Below are positions 38,330 to 53,187 of a stretch of DNA of 64,000 nucleotides, piece by piece. Positions within the stretch are counted from its first letter, which is position 1, and every line of letters begins with the position of its first letter. The stretch is from a virus. A model generated the notes under the pieces. That model was not told the origin of the DNA, did no database searches, and saw nothing but the letters and a program-made list of their open reading frames with translations. The position numbers were made by a program, and so were the translations under genes. The stretch lies in IMG/VR virus record IMGVR_UViG_3300032331_001766, positions 1 to 64,000 of that record; one strand, given 5' to 3'.

Positions 38330-41300
38330 ATGGCAAGAAAAATTTTATTAGAAACAGCATATACATTTACACCGTCAGCAAATACGGTTGTAATTCCAAA
38401 GACAATTTTGAGAGAAAGACTGTTACTTATCACAAATGTGACATCTAACCAAGTTATTTATAACTTCTCAGATCCAAGTTTAAAAGCAACATCATATATT
38501 ACTAACACAGACTCAAGCGCAAATGAGTCTACAACAATTGTATTAAGCTACAATACAGCAGCAATGCTTTCAACAGACAAGCTTTCCTTTACAATTGATG
38601 AATATGCTGAAAAATTTGAGCCAGCAGAGACATTGATGGACCCAACAAATAAGTTGAGAGTATCAACTCCACAATCTCTTATCGATACCGACTTTGAGTA
38701 TGGTACACAGATTTCTAAGTGGGAAAATTTAGGTCTTTATAACAATAGACCATTTTCTTATACAAGCCCAACACAAATTTCAAATATTTCAGGAATTGCA
38801 ATGGCTAATGGTTCTAGAACTGTTACAGTCACACTTTCATCTGGAGCAGCTCCAGCAAACAATACACCAATTGTTGTACAGGATACATACCTACAAGCAG
38901 CAAATGGTAACTTTATTATCGAAACAGGCGGAGGAGGATCATCATTTACTTACACTGCGTCATCAACAAATACTACATCAGTGACAGCGATCTTTGATCC
39001 AAATAAAACAGTAGTATCAACAGGAAATCTATTTTCTGGTGCACAAATTGGTGGAACACCAACTCTTTCATATTCTGGTCGCAAAATTACAGTAACAACT
39101 ACAATTCCTCATGGCCTAGCATTAGGAAATGAAATTGTAGTAATGGGTGTAACAGCTTCAACAAATGCACCAAATGGAAATATGGAAGTTGCACAGATTA
39201 CAAGCTCTACAGTCTTCTCATACTATGCAGATGCTATTCCAACTGGAACTTTAGCTGCAGGTTCAATTTACGTAAGACCACAAGCATCATTCTCACACAG
39301 ACCAGCAGATGGCGGAGTTATTTTCGGTACAAACTCTGGTTCAAATTATGCTTCAGCAACAAGACAGACAAGACGTTATTTCCGTTACCAATCAGGTAAA
39401 GGTATTCAATTCTCATCTGGAACAATTTTAAAGCCATACGCAGGTATTGATTCAATTACTTGGGATGGATCTATTGTTACAGTTCAAACAAAAGAAAGAC
39501 ACAATATTCAGCCAGGAACAGTTGTTAAGGTTGGTGGTTGTGATCAGTATCAATTTAATGGAACATTTACAATTACAAGCATTATAGCTTTTGATAAGTT
39601 CCAGTACACACCAACAACTTCACCAACAACATCAATTGCTACTGGTGCATTTTATGCTTCAGTAGAAGGATGGACTGGCTGCCAAAATAGACTAGGCGGA
39701 TTTGATAGTCAAAATGGTTTATTCTTTGAGTATGATGGTAAGACATTGTATGCAGTTAGAAGAAATTCTACATTCCAGGCTTCTGGAAGAGTTAGCGTAA
39801 CAAATGGAACATCTTTGGTTACACAAACATCTTCAACATTCCCAACCTACTTTGCAAAGCAATTTGCACCAGGAGACTACATTGTAATTAGAGGTCAATC
39901 ATATAAGATTCAAGATATTGCATCAAACGTATCTATGACAATTACGCCAGCATATCGTGGAGCAACCACAGATTATGCAATTCTTTCAAAGACTCAAGAA
40001 ACTCGTATTGCTCAATCATCGTTTAATATTGATAAACTAGACGGAACAGGCCCATCACAATACAATCTAGACTTAGGCAAAATGCAGATGTTCTATATTG
40101 ACTATACATGGTATGGTGCTGGTTTCGTAAGATGGGGTGTTAGAGGTCCAAAAGGTAACGTTGTTTATGTACACAAGATGCCTAACAACAACATGAATAC
40201 AGAAGCTTATATGCGTTCTGGAAACTTGCCAGGAAGATATGAATCTACAACAACACCTCCTTATACATTTACTAAGGCAGATATGCTAACAACAGATTCA
40301 GCTATATCAGTTTCAGATACTACCAAATTCCCAGACGCAGGTACACTTGTAGTTAGAAATGCAAGCACATACGAGTATGTAAACTATACTGGAAAAACAC
40401 AGTCTACTGGTATTTACACCACTACAGCTACAGGAACATCTGGAGTCGGAACTCTTGTTGTAGGTTCAAATACTGGACTAGCCGTAGGAATGACTGCAAC
40501 TGGTATTGGAGTTGGTTATGGCGCAACAATTACAAACGTAAACGGAACAGTCATTACTGTATCTGTTGCAAATACATCTGCAGTCAACGGAAACGTTGTA
40601 TTCAGCGGTGGAGCAACATCTGGTACATTCACTGGTTTAACTAGAGCAAAAGCTGGAGAAGCAAGCGTAAGCTTAACAATTGCAGCTGGAGCAAATGGTT
40701 GTACTGGAGTAACAACAACAAACCTACAAGTAGGTATGAGAGTAATTTCTTCAGCTTTCCCTGAAGGAACATATATTTCAAAGATTGTTGGAAGCGAAGT
40801 TACTTTCTCACAAGCAGCACTTTCTGCAAATCCAACTGGAGTAATTTTTGCTCCAATGGGTGCAACATCAGCTCAATTATTTACATATTCTGATACAGCC
40901 CCAACATGTGTTGAATTAGCTTTCCCAACATTCTCAGCATCAATTTCACACTGGGGAACATCAGTAATTATGGATGGTCGCTTTGATGATGATAAGTCGC
41001 TTGTCTTTACATATGGACAAAGAGTTGCAACAGCACTGGCACCAGCACAAAACGTTACAACAACAATCACAGGAACATCTGGAGCGAATACAATTGTAGT
41101 TGGTTCAGGTACAAACTTAGTACCAGGCATGTCAGTGACAGGAACTGGTATCGGAGCAGGAGCAACTGTAACAATTGTTAACGGAACAGGTATTACATTA
41201 TCTGTTAATAACTCAGGAACAGTTTCTGGTAACGGAACATTCTCTGGTGGTAACTCAAAGGCACTATTCTCAATTAGAGTAGCCCCTTCAGTAGATAATG

Positions 41301-41758
41301 GTATCGCAGCAGCGTTCGGTGCTCGTGAACTTGTAAACAGAATGCAGCTAACACTTAGAGCTCTTGATGTTACAACTTCAACAGCAGGTGCAAACCTACT
41401 CGTAACAGCCGTTTTGAATGGCCTTCCAAGCTCATCAACTCCTTGGACAAATGCAGTAGGAAATGCAGCAGGAGCAGTTAACTCTTCTCTAGCACAAATT
41501 GCAGATTATGCTGGTGGTTTAACAACAGTGTCTGGTGGAGAAGTAACAGCTGGATTCTTCGTTGGAACTGGTGCAAACTCAATCGATCTTTCAGGAGTTC
41601 GTGATCTTGGTAACTCTGTCCTTGGTGGCGGAGGAGTAAATGCTAACACAAATATCTATCCAGATGGACCAGATGTACTTACAGTAACAATTTCAAACCT
41701 TGGTACTACATCTGCATCAGTGTTCGGTAGATTATCTTGGACAGAAGCTCAGGCATAA
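38330..41758 (+). CDS. large virion structural protein (tail/baseplate)
   Basis: The 1142-residue beta-rich protein contains two copies of a roughly 60-residue module (TLVVGSNTGLAVGMTATGIG and TIVVGSGTNLVPGMSVTGTG, each ending with FSGG). It contains no visible enzymatic motif. Similar very large proteins occur in fibre regions of actinophages and cyanophages. Position between fibre genes supports a structural role. Confidence 0.75.
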   Translation: MARKILLETAYTFTPSANTVVIPKTILRERLLLITNVTSNQVIYNFSDPSLKATSYITNTDSSANESTTIVLSYNTAAMLSTDKLSFTIDEYAEKFEPAETLMDPTNKLRVSTPQSLIDTDFEYGTQISKWENLGLYNNRPFSYTSPTQISNISGIAMANGSRTVTVTLSSGAAPANNTPIVVQDTYLQAANGNFIIETGGGGSSFTYTASSTNTTSVTAIFDPNKTVVSTGNLFSGAQIGGTPTLSYSGRKITVTTTIPHGLALGNEIVVMGVTASTNAPNGNMEVAQITSSTVFSYYADAIPTGTLAAGSIYVRPQASFSHRPADGGVIFGTNSGSNYASATRQTRRYFRYQSGKGIQFSSGTILKPYAGIDSITWDGSIVTVQTKERHNIQPGTVVKVGGCDQYQFNGTFTITSIIAFDKFQYTPTTSPTTSIATGAFYASVEGWTGCQNRLGGFDSQNGLFFEYDGKTLYAVRRNSTFQASGRVSVTNGTSLVTQTSSTFPTYFAKQFAPGDYIVIRGQSYKIQDIASNVSMTITPAYRGATTDYAILSKTQETRIAQSSFNIDKLDGTGPSQYNLDLGKMQMFYIDYTWYGAGFVRWGVRGPKGNVVYVHKMPNNNMNTEAYMRSGNLPGRYESTTTPPYTFTKADMLTTDSAISVSDTTKFPDAGTLVVRNASTYEYVNYTGKTQSTGIYTTTATGTSGVGTLVVGSNTGLAVGMTATGIGVGYGATITNVNGTVITVSVANTSAVNGNVVFSGGATSGTFTGLTRAKAGEASVSLTIAAGANGCTGVTTTNLQVGMRVISSAFPEGTYISKIVGSEVTFSQAALSANPTGVIFAPMGATSAQLFTYSDTAPTCVELAFPTFSASISHWGTSVIMDGRFDDDKSLVFTYGQRVATALAPAQNVTTTITGTSGANTIVVGSGTNLVPGMSVTGTGIGAGATVTIVNGTGITLSVNNSGTVSGNGTFSGGNSKALFSIRVAPSVDNGIAAAFGARELVNRMQLTLRALDVTTSTAGANLLVTAVLNGLPSSSTPWTNAVGNAAGAVNSSLAQIADYAGGLTTVSGGEVTAGFFVGTGANSIDLSGVRDLGNSVLGGGGVNANTNIYPDGPDVLTVTISNLGTTSASVFGRLSWTEAQA

Positions 41759-41770
41759 GGAGAATATAAA

Positions 41771-42271
41771 TTGTCTATCAATAAGGCTAAAGTCAATTAC
41801 GATGATGCCCTTGAGGTCAAATCTATAGTCTCATCTGATTCAGCGGGATTTAATGGTGTAACCTCTTTGGCTGGTACTACCAAATTACTAGGAATACTTG
41901 ATTTATCTCAAGGAACAGTAGTGTTTGCAGATGGTATCCAGTCAAAGCAGGGAACACCTTCCCTAACTGATATTAAAGTTAAATATTTTAACTACACATT
42001 ATCATCATTAGATGATAGAGATAGTATTATTGAAATGAATAATGTTGCTGCAAATACATTAACTGTTCCATTAGATTCTACAACTAACTTTCCTATTGGA
42101 ACAACTATTGATATAATTCAAGCAAATGCTGGTCAAACTACAGTTGTTGCAACAGCAGGAGTTATTATTAATGCTACACCTGGTTTACAGCTAAGACAAA
42201 AATGGTCTGTTGCTACATTATTAAAAAGAGCACCAAATACATGGTTGCTTTTTGGCGACTTAACAGCTTAA
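41771..42271 (+). CDS. fibre-associated protein, TTG start
   Basis: The 166-residue protein begins at TTG after AAGGAGAATATAAA. Its second half (TIDIIQANAGQTTVVATAGV; LRQKWSVATLLKRAPNTWLL) matches the C-terminal beta domain often found on phage fibres. It is immediately upstream of the FFxPP protein. Confidence 0.7.
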   Translation: MSINKAKVNYDDALEVKSIVSSDSAGFNGVTSLAGTTKLLGILDLSQGTVVFADGIQSKQGTPSLTDIKVKYFNYTLSSLDDRDSIIEMNNVAANTLTVPLDSTTNFPIGTTIDIIQANAGQTTVVATAGVIINATPGLQLRQKWSVATLLKRAPNTWLLFGDLTA

Positions 42272-42282
42272 AGGGGATATAA

Positions 42283-43911
42283 ATGAGTAAAAAGGCTGGT
42301 AGAAAATCTGATCAATTAGCTGGTGACTTTCAGATACCATCTAAACCAAATAAACCTACCGCTGTAGATGTTGGAACTAATAGACTATATAATAATGGTT
42401 CACATATTGTTTCATTTACATATCCTTCAGGTCAGCCACCAGTTTCTTCATATACAGTTATTTCTTCTCCTGGAGGATTTACAAATGTTGGAGCATCAAG
42501 TCCAATTACAGTTGTAGGTCTACAGTCTAATATTGATTATACTTGGACAGTAACTGCAACTAACGTAAATGGAACATCAGACCCTTCAGATCCTTCTGAT
42601 GCAGTAAAAGCTACAACAGTTCCAGAAGCACCAATTAATGTAACAGCAATATCAAATACAACTGGACCAGGGCATAATGCAAACACTCCTGATCTTCGTG
42701 GACAAGATACTGTTTCGTGGACAACTCCAACAAATAATGGTGGAAAACCAATATCAACTTATACTGTTTTATCATCAGATGCAGTAGCTCAACCAGGAGG
42801 TCTTGGTCCTTCTTATACCGTAACAGCACCAACAACAACTATAAATATTAGAGAAACTATGGGTACTACTCAAACCTATACGGTTACTGCAAATAATGCT
42901 AATGGTTCATCTTTAGCTGGAGCAAGTTCCTCTGTTACTACATTCTTTTCCCCACCAGTATTCTTTTCGCCACCTCTATTCTTTGCGCCACCGCTGTTCT
43001 TCAGCCCACCGCTGTTCTTCAGCCCACCCCTATTTTTTGCGCCACCGCTGTTCTTCAGCCCACCGCTGTTCTTCAGCCCACCTCTATTCTTTGCGCCACC
43101 GCTGTTCTTCAGCCCACCGCTGTTTTTCAGCCCACCTCTATTTTTTGCGCCACCGCTGTTCTTCAGCCCACCAGGGTTCTTTAATCCTCCTGGATTCTTT
43201 TCACCACCAGCGTTCTTTGCGCCACCTCTATTTTTTGCGCCACCGCTGTTCTTTTCCCCACCAGCATTCTTTTCACCACCAGGGTTTTTTAACCCTCCTG
43301 GATTCTTTTCACCACCAAGATTCTTTGCACCCCCATTATTTTTCTCCCCACCAAGATTCTTTTCCCCACCAGCATTTTGTATTGCAGAAAATACATTAGT
43401 CTTAACTACAGACGGATACAAGAAGGCAAAAGATATTGAAGTTGGTGATATTTTATCAACAGTCTCATTTAATAATCTTCCTTTAGGAGATAGTAATTGT
43501 TCAATAGGTAATATTACAGATAAATGTATTGATATTGTTGACAAATGGAACTCTGAAGGACTACATGGTGTTAATTTCCTAGAGTCAAAAGTTACAGATA
43601 TTAAAGAAGCAGTATATGAGTCTTCAATCTATTTTAATGATGATTTTTCAAAAGAGCTATCTTTATCAGAACAGATACTTGTAAACAGAGATGAAAAGTT
43701 TACATTTAAAACAACATCTGAAATTAAAGTAGGAGATACTATAATATCTTACTCAGATAAAGATTTAATTGATATTAAAGTTGAGTCTATTAATATTGTA
43801 GAAAAAGAAACAAAAACATTTTTATTCTACAGAGATCCATATGGATTAATTATTGCAGACGGTATGCTTGCATATAATGGTTGTCCAGCCCTTTCCTTGA
43901 CCAACAACTAA
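42283..43911 (+). CDS. FN3 / FFxPP-repeat / Hint-domain protein
   Basis: The 542-residue, three-part protein begins with two fibronectin III-like domains (about residues 17-112 and 113-220). A run of 24 hexapeptides of form xFFxPP (residues 221-363) follows. It ends with a Hint domain from Cys366 (CIAENTLVLTTDGYKKAKDI) to Asn532-Gly533-Cys534 (YNGC), like inteins and bacterial intein-like domains. The usual block B TxxH reads SLSEQ, so the His is lost and the penultimate His is Tyr, which makes full splicing doubtful; cleavage or cross-linking remains possible. It is probably a virion surface protein. Six oxygenases follow. Confidence 0.8.
   Translation: MSKKAGRKSDQLAGDFQIPSKPNKPTAVDVGTNRLYNNGSHIVSFTYPSGQPPVSSYTVISSPGGFTNVGASSPITVVGLQSNIDYTWTVTATNVNGTSDPSDPSDAVKATTVPEAPINVTAISNTTGPGHNANTPDLRGQDTVSWTTPTNNGGKPISTYTVLSSDAVAQPGGLGPSYTVTAPTTTINIRETMGTTQTYTVTANNANGSSLAGASSSVTTFFSPPVFFSPPLFFAPPLFFSPPLFFSPPLFFAPPLFFSPPLFFSPPLFFAPPLFFSPPLFFSPPLFFAPPLFFSPPGFFNPPGFFSPPAFFAPPLFFAPPLFFSPPAFFSPPGFFNPPGFFSPPRFFAPPLFFSPPRFFSPPAFCIAENTLVLTTDGYKKAKDIEVGDILSTVSFNNLPLGDSNCSIGNITDKCIDIVDKWNSEGLHGVNFLESKVTDIKEAVYESSIYFNDDFSKELSLSEQILVNRDEKFTFKTTSEIKVGDTIISYSDKDLIDIKVESINIVEKETKTFLFYRDPYGLIIADGMLAYNGCPALSLTNN
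42943..43371 (+). repeat. 24 tandem 18-bp units encoding xFFxPP
   Basis: The units are 18 bp; in the first half they group into 54-bp higher-order repeats (LFFSPPLFFSPPLFFAPP). Third residue is S, A or N and the leading one L, G, A, V or R. The DNA is clearly richer in G+C than its surroundings, a sign of different origin or recent expansion. Confidence 0.9.
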
Positions 43912-43931: not shown

Positions 43932-44564
43932 ATGTACTCTAGAAAAGAAGAAGTCTTTCATGGCATCTGGAAATATTCAGATGTTTTTACTCCAGAGCTG
44001 GATTTAATTAATAGAATTGAATCAGAAGTAGAAAAAGAAGAGTTTTCCTGGAGAAAAGGTACAGTTGGGTTAGATGCTGAATATCCAGAATACAGAGATT
44101 GTTATGATCTTAAATTAAGTAGACTAGGCAAATCTCATCCCTTATATCAGGATATTTATAATGCTCAAGTACCATGTGTAAATGATTATTGCTCAATGTA
44201 TACAATTGAAATGAATTATTGGGAATGGACTAATATTGTTAAATATGAACCAGGACAACATTTTCAAGAACATGCTGATCATGGCTGGTCATATATATCA
44301 ACTGTATCTTTAGTTGGATATCCAAATGATAATTATGAAGGCGGAGATCTTTATTTTCCAAAACTTAATGTAACAATAAAGCCAAAAGCTGGAGACTTAT
44401 ATATATTCCCATCAGCATATATTTATTCACATGTTGCAAGACCAGTTTTATCTGGAACAAAGTATTGTTTTGCTACGATGTTAGATTATAATGATGACGC
44501 ACATTCAAAAGAATTTGAAGATTATTTAGATAAAAAATATAACAAAGAAAAGAGATTAATATAA
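43932..44564 (+). CDS. 2OG-Fe(II) oxygenase (copy 5)
   Basis: The start at 43932 (MYSRKEEVFHGIWKY) is six bases after TATAGT; the frame back to 43881 overlaps the fibre gene and is not used. The 210-residue enzyme has EHADHGW (His, Asp), YSHVARPV (His) and GTKYCFATML (Lys). Core PNDNYEGGDLYFPKLNVTI, then KPKAGDLYIFPS. It is close to copy 6 and likely arose by duplication. Confidence 0.88.
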   Translation: MYSRKEEVFHGIWKYSDVFTPELDLINRIESEVEKEEFSWRKGTVGLDAEYPEYRDCYDLKLSRLGKSHPLYQDIYNAQVPCVNDYCSMYTIEMNYWEWTNIVKYEPGQHFQEHADHGWSYISTVSLVGYPNDNYEGGDLYFPKLNVTIKPKAGDLYIFPSAYIYSHVARPVLSGTKYCFATMLDYNDDAHSKEFEDYLDKKYNKEKRLI

Positions 44565-51606: not shown

Positions 51607-53187
51607 ATGGAATTCATGCATGAAGAAGACTCACAAAATATTATTGATATTTCTAATACTGCAGACTGGTTTTCTTTTAAAAAAGAAATAACAACAAGCA
51701 ACGACCCATTTGCTATAGACGTTGAAGAATTAAAAAAGTTTAAAGGTCTAAGCCCAGCATTTCGTAGAAAAATGAATCGTGATTTTTCAAAGTCATTTTC
51801 TGGAATTGATGGAGTTACAACACAACAGAATTTATTGGCTCAAGCAATTACTGGCTACGCAATGTTCGATCTTATCGAGCCACCATATAACCTAGAATAC
51901 CTTTCAAAAATTTATGAAGTTTCAACATATAACTATGCTGCAATTAATGCAAAGGTCTCTAACATTGTTGGTTTAGGATACGACTTTATTGAAACAAAAA
52001 AAACCAATGATGCGTTTGATGCAATAGAAGATGAAAAAGTTTTGGCTAGAGCACGTAAGAAGCTTGGTAAGCTTAGACAAGATATGCAAGAGTGGTTAGA
52101 TACAACAAACGATGAAGATACATTTACTCAAACTTTAATTAAGGTCTATACAGATTTAGAAGCTACTGGAAATGGGTTCCTAGAAATTGGTAGAACGACA
52201 TCAGGCAATATTGGTTACATTGGGCATATTCCAGCAAAGACAATGAGAATAAGAAGATTGCGTGATGGCTTTATTCAATTACTTTATGGCAAGGCTGTGT
52301 ATTTCCGCAACTTTGGAGACTCAGAAACATTGAGTCCAATTACTTCACAAGAAGAAAGACCTAATGAAGTTATTCATTTTAAAAAGTATACTCCTATGAA
52401 TAACTACTATGGAATTCCAGACATCATTGCCGCACAGACAGCGTTGGCTGGTAACGAATTTTCTGGTAGATATAACCTAGACTACTTTGAAAATAAAGCG
52501 GTCCCAAGATATATTATTACAGTAAAGGGAGCAAAGCTTTCACCAGAATCAGAAAGAAAACTTCTTGAGTTTTTTCAGGTTGGATTAAAGGGCAAAAATC
52601 ACAGATCTCTTTACGTTCCGCTACCAGCAGATACCCCAGACTCTAAAGTTGAATTTAAAATGGAGCCAATTGAAGCTGGCAATCAGGAAGGCTCATTTGA
52701 GAAGTATCGCAAATCAAATAGAGACGAAATCCTATTAGCTCACCGTGTGCCAATTAATAAAATTGGAACCCCAGAAGGACTAAGCCTGGCAAATGCTCGT
52801 GATGCAGATAAAACATTTAAAGAGCAAGTATGCCGACCAGCCCAAATGATTCTAGAAAAGAAATTAAATAGAATATTTGAAGAAAAAACAGATGCCCTTC
52901 TACTTAAATTTAATGAATTAACATTGACTGATGCAGATACTCAGTCTAAAATTGATGAGCGTTATTTAAGAATGCAGGTAATTGTTCCTAATGAAGTTAG
53001 AATTAGAAATGGCTGGATCCCACTTGATGGCGGAGATAAAGTCATAGAATTAAAGCCTCAACAAGCAGCAGAACAATCAGCCCAGGCAGGCAAGACAAGA
53101 GCACGGGATGGTGAAAGAGCTGCAAATTCACCAGATAAATCTGGAGAAGGAAGAAATGCAAAAGGCGACGGGAGCAAGGTAGAGTAA
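51607..53187 (+). CDS. portal protein
   Basis: The 526-residue protein fits the PBSX/HK97-type portal family: LEYLSKIYEVSTYNYAAINA, then VSNIVGLGYDF, the clip region with FLEIGRTTSGNIGYIGHIPA, YYGIPDIIAAQTALAGNEFS, and the wing GLKGKNHRSLYVPLP. A C-terminal disordered, charged tail (ARDGERAANSPDKSGEGRNA) follows. Twelve copies would form the DNA gate at one capsid vertex. Confidence 0.88.
   Translation: MEFMHEEDSQNIIDISNTADWFSFKKEITTSNDPFAIDVEELKKFKGLSPAFRRKMNRDFSKSFSGIDGVTTQQNLLAQAITGYAMFDLIEPPYNLEYLSKIYEVSTYNYAAINAKVSNIVGLGYDFIETKKTNDAFDAIEDEKVLARARKKLGKLRQDMQEWLDTTNDEDTFTQTLIKVYTDLEATGNGFLEIGRTTSGNIGYIGHIPAKTMRIRRLRDGFIQLLYGKAVYFRNFGDSETLSPITSQEERPNEVIHFKKYTPMNNYYGIPDIIAAQTALAGNEFSGRYNLDYFENKAVPRYIITVKGAKLSPESERKLLEFFQVGLKGKNHRSLYVPLPADTPDSKVEFKMEPIEAGNQEGSFEKYRKSNRDEILLAHRVPINKIGTPEGLSLANARDADKTFKEQVCRPAQMILEKKLNRIFEEKTDALLLKFNELTLTDADTQSKIDERYLRMQVIVPNEVRIRNGWIPLDGGDKVIELKPQQAAEQSAQAGKTRARDGERAANSPDKSGEGRNAKGDGSKVE

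What the first reader, a model, noticed from the sequence alone, without database searches (positions are those of the whole stretch)
43378..43911. Hint domain lacking the block B His and the penultimate His
The C-terminal region from Cys366 to NGC at 532-534 has intein block A and G features, but TxxH reads SLSEQ and the usual HN is YN. Eight residues follow the final Cys, too few for a real C-extein. It may cleave itself at Cys366 or form an ester or thioester that attaches the repeat protein to a surface.
Basis: partly seen in the sequence, partly recalled or inferred. Interest (0 to 1): 0.72.

Follow-up and report, generated by a model that had tools for sequence, protein, structure and literature searches.

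The report
Phage fibre cap: His-less Hint domain
A fibre-like protein of an uncultured water phage ends in an intein-type (Hint) domain whose usual helper histidines are gone while the reactive cysteine is kept in every relative found, so it is either a self-cutting domain working by unusual chemistry or a dead one reused as a cap, and a simple expression test can tell which.

Summary
ORF 42283-43911 (542 aa: fn3 domains, 24 FFxPPx repeats) ends in a 177-residue domain from Cys366. It has the Hint (Hedgehog/intein) fold: AlphaFold pLDDT 92, and all 50 listed PDB matches are inteins, bacterial intein-like domains or Hedgehog. Block B TxxH reads S460-LS-E463 and the end reads Y531-N532-G-C534.

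It is not a lone oddity. I found 49 distinct family members in viral contigs. Cys1 is present in 49/49 (37/37 in searches blind to it). Block-B Thr is Ser in 49/49. Block-B His is Glu or Gln in 49/49. In 15 of them Cys1 is the only cysteine. The C-terminal site decays: penultimate His in 4/49, Asn replaced by His in one clade, nothing after Asn in another. dN/dS is about 0.1. Canonical cousins (TxxH, HN, Gly at -1) cap collagen-like fibre proteins of jumbo phages.

Best reading: a BIL-like Hint domain that may still activate the F365-C366 bond. [quoted passage not shown] A dead structural cap is the main rival. Attachment to a surface is untested. New variant of a known kind; no chemistry was shown.

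The parts
42283..43911 (+). Whole ORF, 542 aa: fn3-like N-terminus, FFxPPx repeats, C-terminal Hint domain
42394..42600 (+). Fibronectin type III domain (residues 38-106); a second beta domain at about 118-205
   Evidence: Pfam PF00041 E 1.1e-7; AlphaFold full-length model
42943..43371 (+). 24 FFxPP(x) repeats, residues 221-363; no predicted structure (pLDDT <50)
43375..43377 (+). Phe365, the -1 residue of the putative N-terminal junction
   Evidence: -1 residue is F/Y/I/L in 33 of 37 distinct C1-blind relatives
43378..43878 (+). Hint domain, Cys366 to Asn532
   Evidence: AlphaFold pLDDT 92, Foldseek PDB, BFVD, profile hit to RadA intein
43660..43671 (+). Block B: S460 (Thr B:7 position) and E463 (His B:10 position)
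43870..43884 (+). Block G: A530-Y531-N532-G533-C534 in place of HN|+1
43879..43908 (+). Ten residues after Asn532 (GCPALSLTNN)
41771..42271 (+). Upstream 166-aa protein with the tail-fibre C-terminal motif (..NTWLLFGDLTA); conserved neighbour
   Evidence: PHROG virion, tail-fibre and minor-tail hits; synteny
38330..41758 (+). Virion structural protein (phrog_5838), about 46% identical to cyanophage proteins
43932..44564 (+). Downstream 2OG-Fe(II) oxygenase, conserved neighbour in most of the sampled clades

Best explanation
It is a C-terminal Hint domain (closest in kind to bacterial intein-like domains) that caps a repetitive, fibre-like phage protein. SHOWN: the Hint fold, the homology to complete Hint domains at the ends of collagen-like virion proteins of jumbo phages, the uniform replacement of block-B Thr/His by Ser and Glu/Gln, the strict conservation of Cys1, and strong purifying selection. 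INFERRED: the domain still activates the Phe365-Cys366 bond. Cys366 attacks the carbonyl of Phe365 to form a thioester (N-to-S acyl shift). The lost histidine is compensated by strain from the bulky -1 residue together with Ser460 and Glu463. The thioester is then slowly resolved by water, a thiol or an amine, freeing the repeat fibre from the Hint cap during or after assembly. The C-terminal half of the intein reaction (Asn cyclisation) has decayed and is probably not the purpose.
For: Fold. Homology to complete cousins: hhalign 98.9%, E 2.7e-17; tblastn of a relative to NCTB 4e-7. Cys1 is in 49/49 distinct sequences, 37/37 from searches keyed on other motifs; it is conserved where Asn is replaced by His (L114 clade), where nothing follows Asn (L108 clade), and where it is the only cysteine (15 sequences), so an intramolecular disulfide within the domain cannot explain it there. 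Conservation ranks of 177 positions: Cys1 1st, B:7 Ser 3rd, Asn G:7 11th, B:10 Glu/Gln 12th, while penultimate G:6 is 44th, F:4 77th and +1 87th: the N-terminal subsite is kept, most of the C-terminal one drifts. dN/dS about 0.09-0.15 for most pairs and 0.16-0.20 for two more diverged pairs, including clades without Asn or without a tail. -1 residue F24, Y5, I3, L1 versus G3, S1 in the blind set, but Gly in the His-bearing cousins. [quoted passage not shown]
Against: Block-B His is described as the most conserved intein residue, and of two inteins known without it in 2014 one is a degraded pseudogene (PMC4031507). F:4 Asp and penultimate His are also missing in the window. Three sequences have Gly and one Ser at -1, so strain cannot be the whole story. 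Phe at -1 may simply be the next letter of the FFxPPx repeat. Asn532 is itself still well conserved (45/49), which the N-terminal-only model does not explain. A sister set of FFxPP proteins has an 18-residue Cys tail instead of the Hint domain, so its activity is not needed everywhere.
Confidence: 0.5

Rival explanations
1. The Hint fold is catalytically dead and has been reused as a structural C-terminal cap (assembly, oligomerisation or host-contact domain) of a fibre protein. Cys1 is kept for packing or for an intermolecular disulfide between fibre chains.
For: Block-B His, F:4 Asp and penultimate His are all missing in the window and its clade; Asn is lost in one clade, and in another Asn is the last residue so nothing could be released there. 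In the window clade C41, C50 and C169 appear together with Cys1, an even number that fits two disulfides. The domain is interchangeable with an 18-residue Cys-rich tail that also begins with Cys at the same place.
Against: Cys1 is never replaced in 49 distinct sequences as little as 26-28% identical to the window, including 15 with no other Cys; B:7 is always Ser and B:10 always Glu/Gln, so the N-terminal active-site corner is among the most conserved parts, which a mere scaffold would not need.
Confidence: 0.35
2. One reading: the thioester at Cys366 is not hydrolysed but passed to a nucleophile, so that the repeat fibre becomes covalently attached to another virion or host-surface molecule (Hedgehog-like transfer).
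For: Same first step as the best explanation; Hedgehog is among the fold matches; the gene lies in a tail-fibre region.
Against: No substrate-recognition region follows the Hint core (ten residues only) and no partner is known; nothing here tests it.
Confidence: 0.1
3. Functional intein: splices, or cuts at Asn532, releasing a short C-terminal peptide.
For: Asn is kept in 45/49, and Asn-Gly, a succinimide-prone pair, stands in the window clade.
Against: +1 is Gly, Ala, Lys, Arg, Leu, Met or absent, never Cys/Ser/Thr; penultimate His in only 4/49; Asn is His in the L114 clade; L108-L111 end at the Asn. The C-terminal stretch is 0-34 residues and unconserved.
Confidence: 0.05

Closest known systems
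Hint domains at the ends of collagen-like virion proteins of jumbo phages (Phage NCTB BN7874_136; Erwinia phages pEa_SNUABM_2 and pEa_SNUABM_7)
   Same: Same position (C-terminal cap of a repetitive fibre-like protein), shared W and N landmarks, 7-10 residues after Asn, tail-fibre neighbourhood
   Different: They keep TxxH and His-Asn and have Gly at -1; the window family has SxxE/Q, mostly Tyr-Asn, bulky -1, and FFxPPx or VFGFSPFx repeats
Bacterial intein-like (BIL) domains, A- and B-type
   Same: Fold (top PDB hits are BIL domains); variable host proteins; no Cys/Ser/Thr +1 nucleophile needed; N-terminal cleavage is the intein-like activity of B-type (PMC7765530)
   Different: A-type keeps His-Asn; B-type keeps intein motifs other than the C-terminal one; this family lacks block-B His in all members
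Tko CDC21-1 intein
   Same: Natural Hint domain without block-B His; bulky -1 residue (Leu) as noted in PMC6333167
   Different: A true splicing intein in a host enzyme, compensated by a Lys (PMC4031507); a small ortholog group
Ssp DnaB M86 intein G-1F/H73A mutant (PDB 6FRE)
   Same: Phe at -1 and no block-B His; N-S acyl shift still occurs (PMC6333167)
   Different: Laboratory mutant; Ala rather than Glu at B:10; other intein residues intact
Hedgehog Hog domain
   Same: C-terminal Hint, Cys1 chemistry without need of a C-terminal Asn
   Different: Has block-B TxxH and a sterol-recognition region (established knowledge)

Membership tests
Hint (Hedgehog/intein) superfamily | Horseshoe all-beta Hint fold | tested here: met
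   pLDDT 92.2; 50 of 50 listed PDB hits are Hint, best E 3.4e-6; Pfam alone does not reach a cut-off
Hint (Hedgehog/intein) superfamily | N-terminal nucleophile Cys/Ser at position 1 (block A) | tested here: met
   C366; 49/49 family members, 37/37 blind
Active Hint domains in general | Block B TxxH (usual, not part of the fold definition; Tko CDC21-1 is an active exception) | tested here: not met
   S460-LS-E463; Ser 49/49, Glu/Gln 49/49
Intein | C-terminal His-Asn plus +1 Cys/Ser/Thr | tested here: not met
   Tyr-Asn-Gly
Intein | Inserted in a host protein with a conserved C-extein | tested here: not met
   0-34 unconserved residues follow
A-type BIL domain | Highly conserved His-Asn at the C-terminus | tested here: not met
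   Only 4 of 49 (L006, L020, L046, L066) have His-Asn
B-type BIL domain | Intein motifs except the C-terminal one | tested here: not met
   Block-B His absent
BIL-like autocleavage (mechanism) | Cleavage at the N-terminal junction | not testable with these tools
   Needs expression and mass spectrometry
Polymorphic-toxin PT-HINT | Hint followed by a toxin domain | tested here: not met
   Only ten residues follow Asn532
Hedgehog Hog | Block-B TxxH and sterol-recognition region | tested here: not met
   Block-B His absent and only ten residues after the Hint core

The most novel reading that the evidence does not exclude
A natural, widespread Hint family has replaced the general acid/base histidine by Glu/Gln and drives the N-S acyl shift by steric strain from a bulky residue at -1, the trick so far shown only in a laboratory intein mutant. 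It serves as a removable or ligating C-terminal cap of phage fibre repeats.
Probability: 0.3. Interest if true: 0.75.

Novelty: new variant of a known kind. Interest (0 to 1): 0.52.

Why it matters
Block-B His is treated as near-essential for Hint chemistry; reviews (PMC4031507 of 2014, PMC7765530 of 2020) list only two natural inteins without it, one of them a pseudogene. A family of dozens of distinct phage Hint domains that all lack it yet never lose Cys1 makes the question of how little catalytic machinery a Hint domain needs directly testable, and gives natural sequences to try for the strain mechanism seen in the Ssp DnaB G-1F/H73A mutant.

Tried and rejected
Pfam, PHROG and single-sequence PDB searches with the window protein: no Hint hit. 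tblastn of the window Hint in cultured phages: none. One viral pattern scan was lost to a mistyped pattern. The FFxPPxFC scan is circular for Phe -1 and Cys1; it was therefore backed by two searches keyed on GYKKAKDI and on the C-terminal motif, plus MLAYNGC. Considered and rejected: true intein (no +1 nucleophile, no extein), polymorphic toxin (nothing follows), pseudogene (dN/dS about 0.1), lone sequencing error (49 family members), intramolecular disulfide within the domain as the general reason for Cys1 (15 sequences have no other Cys in it). L127 is a genuine intein in a T4-like portal gene and was excluded. Active-site distances could not be measured because model coordinates are not returned. 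One family-scan call failed on wrong coordinates. Paper searches found no earlier description of this family (open-licence papers only).

Full report
WHAT IS THERE. The ORF at 42283-43911 (+) encodes 542 residues. Residues 38-106 match fn3 (Pfam E 1.1e-7). Residues 221-363 hold 24 FFxPP repeats, which the full-length AlphaFold model leaves unstructured (pLDDT below 50 for 224-364). Cys366 begins a 177-residue C-terminal domain.

IS IT A HINT DOMAIN. Family libraries do not call it, but an alignment-based model is confident (pLDDT 92.2, pTM 0.88). Foldseek against the PDB gives 42 matches with E <= 0.001, and all 50 listed rows are BIL domains, inteins or Hedgehog, best 3.4e-6 to Tetrahymena BIL2. 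The sequence profile alone reaches the Pho RadA intein at 6e-4, with its block-B region and HN|A opposite the family's block B and yN|g. In a library of viral models the best matches are fn3-, PASTA- and Hint-named proteins of uncultured Caudovirales and then three records that by length look like the NCTB Hint proteins (the identity of those last records is my inference).

RELATIVES. A pattern scan for FFxPPxFFxPPxFC found 65 stretches in viral contigs. That scan selects Cys1 and Phe -1, so further searches were run on other motifs: GYKKAKDI (57 family loci plus one unrelated intein, L127) and the C-terminal A..xL[AV]YN[GA][CY] motif (67 loci), plus MLAYNGC (42 stretches). Together they give 49 distinct family Hint domains, 37 of them found without using Cys1. 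States at the positions known to matter in inteins (nomenclature as in PMC4031507) are as follows. Cys1: 49/49. B:7 Thr: Ser in 49/49. B:10 His: Glu 45, Gln 4, His 0. F:4 Asp (window position 149 of the domain): Leu 25, Asp 12, Glu 8, Arg 3, Gln 1. G:6 penultimate His: Tyr 40, His 4, Arg 3, Asn 1, Val 1. G:7 Asn: Asn 45, His 4. The four sequences with Gln at B:10 are the same four that keep His-Asn. In the L108-L111 group the protein ends exactly at the Asn; in the L114 clade Asn is His. Contig fragments without block A (L186, L196, L201) were not counted.

COMPLETE COUSINS. Phage NCTB BN7874_136 and Erwinia jumbo-phage virion proteins carry collagen-like repeats followed by a Hint domain with TxxH and His-Asn, Gly at -1, and 7-10 residues after the Asn. 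A metagenomic contig has the same arrangement (L204/L205). The window family is related to NCTB by profile (98.9%, E 2.7e-17) and one member by tblastn (4e-7). A tree drawn with these cousins as the deep branch puts the Gln/His-Asn clade first, then the rest. That is consistent with stepwise loss of B:10 His and then of the penultimate His, but the branches are long and the tool warns that the joins may be false.

SELECTION AND CONSERVATION. Pairwise dN/dS is about 0.09-0.15 for most pairs and 0.16-0.20 for the two most diverged, in the window clade and likewise in the clades lacking Asn or lacking any tail, so this is not a decaying gene. Weighted column entropy ranks Cys1 first, B:7 third, Asn G:7 eleventh and B:10 twelfth of 177, against 44th for G:6, 77th for F:4 and 87th for +1. 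The corner of the active site that attacks the N-terminal junction is therefore among the most conserved parts of the domain, in altered form, while most of the C-terminal junction drifts; Asn itself is the exception. Fifteen members have Cys1 as their only cysteine; in the window clade three more cysteines (41, 50, 169) appear as a set, which would allow C41-C50 and C1-C169 disulfides (inference).

THE -1 RESIDUE. In the C1-blind set the residue before Cys1 is F 24, Y 5, I 3, L 1, G 3, S 1; in the His-bearing cousins it is Gly. Friedel et al. (PMC6333167) showed that bulky -1 side chains restore the N-S acyl shift when block-B His is mutated in the Ssp DnaB intein, with Phe giving up to about 50% splicing in M86(H73A), and pointed to the His-less CDC21-1 inteins with Leu at -1. 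The match is suggestive. Caution: in FFxPPx proteins the Phe may just be the next repeat letter. The L174 clade, with other repeats and a non-repeat linker, still has Y, F or L; L108-L111 (Gly) and L120 (Ser) are exceptions.

CONTEXT. In most sampled clades the gene lies after a protein ending in a tail-fibre-like motif (..NTWLLFGDLxA) and before 2OG-Fe(II) oxygenases and DUF6065 genes; the L118 and L180 clades differ downstream and the L006 group has other genes in between. So the protein belongs to a tail-fibre module, though no virion proteomics exists here. Some FFxPP proteins at the same place in the same module end instead in an 18-residue Cys-rich tail.

MECHANISM AND VERDICT. I favour a Hint domain that can still form the Cys366 thioester and so detach the fibre (0.5). 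A dead structural cap follows at 0.35, transfer to a surface nucleophile at 0.10, and C-terminal cleavage or splicing at 0.05. The family cannot be filed as intein, A-type BIL, B-type BIL or Hog, because a defining feature of each was tested and not met; it can be filed in the Hint superfamily by fold and ancestry. No chemistry has been shown.

Noticed in passing
L008, L011, L013, L025, L040, L060, L068: FFxPP proteins in the same gene neighbourhood end in an 17-18-residue Cys-rich tail (e.g. CSFQCPYGTYCEGNSCIG) starting at exactly the place where the Hint domain starts in others: an interchangeable C-terminal module.
   Followed up: partly
window genome G000: 7115, 23797, 44232, 44903, 47724, 48441, 49171, 91453: Eight 2OG-Fe(II) oxygenase domains (PF13640) above cut-off in a 113-kb phage record, five of them in the 6 kb after the fibre gene; whether they modify the proline-rich repeats is open.
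   Followed up: partly
L114-L124, L174-L197: Same His-less Hint domain behind quite different repeats (VFGFSPFxVFGFSPF), so the cap travels between repeat types.
   Followed up: partly
L127:3501-5200: A genuine intein with a LAGLIDADG-like stretch inserted in a T4-like portal protein (gp20) gene.
   Followed up: no
L128:4480-4938 and L204:3980-4441: A separate small Hint-like ORF directly after the collagen-Hint gene in NCTB and a metagenomic contig.
   Followed up: no
window 51607-53187 versus 38330-41758: Mosaic phage: portal about 57% identical to Streptomyces phages, neighbouring virion protein about 46% identical to cyanophages.
   Followed up: no
L014, L023, L064: A sub-clade has a 28-34-residue acidic extension after the terminal Asn.
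   Followed up: no
window 42876-43544 (-) and 42983-43399 (+): The FFxPP repeat DNA is open in other frames (222 aa antisense, 138 aa sense); by-product of the repeat, not evidence of genes.
   Followed up: no
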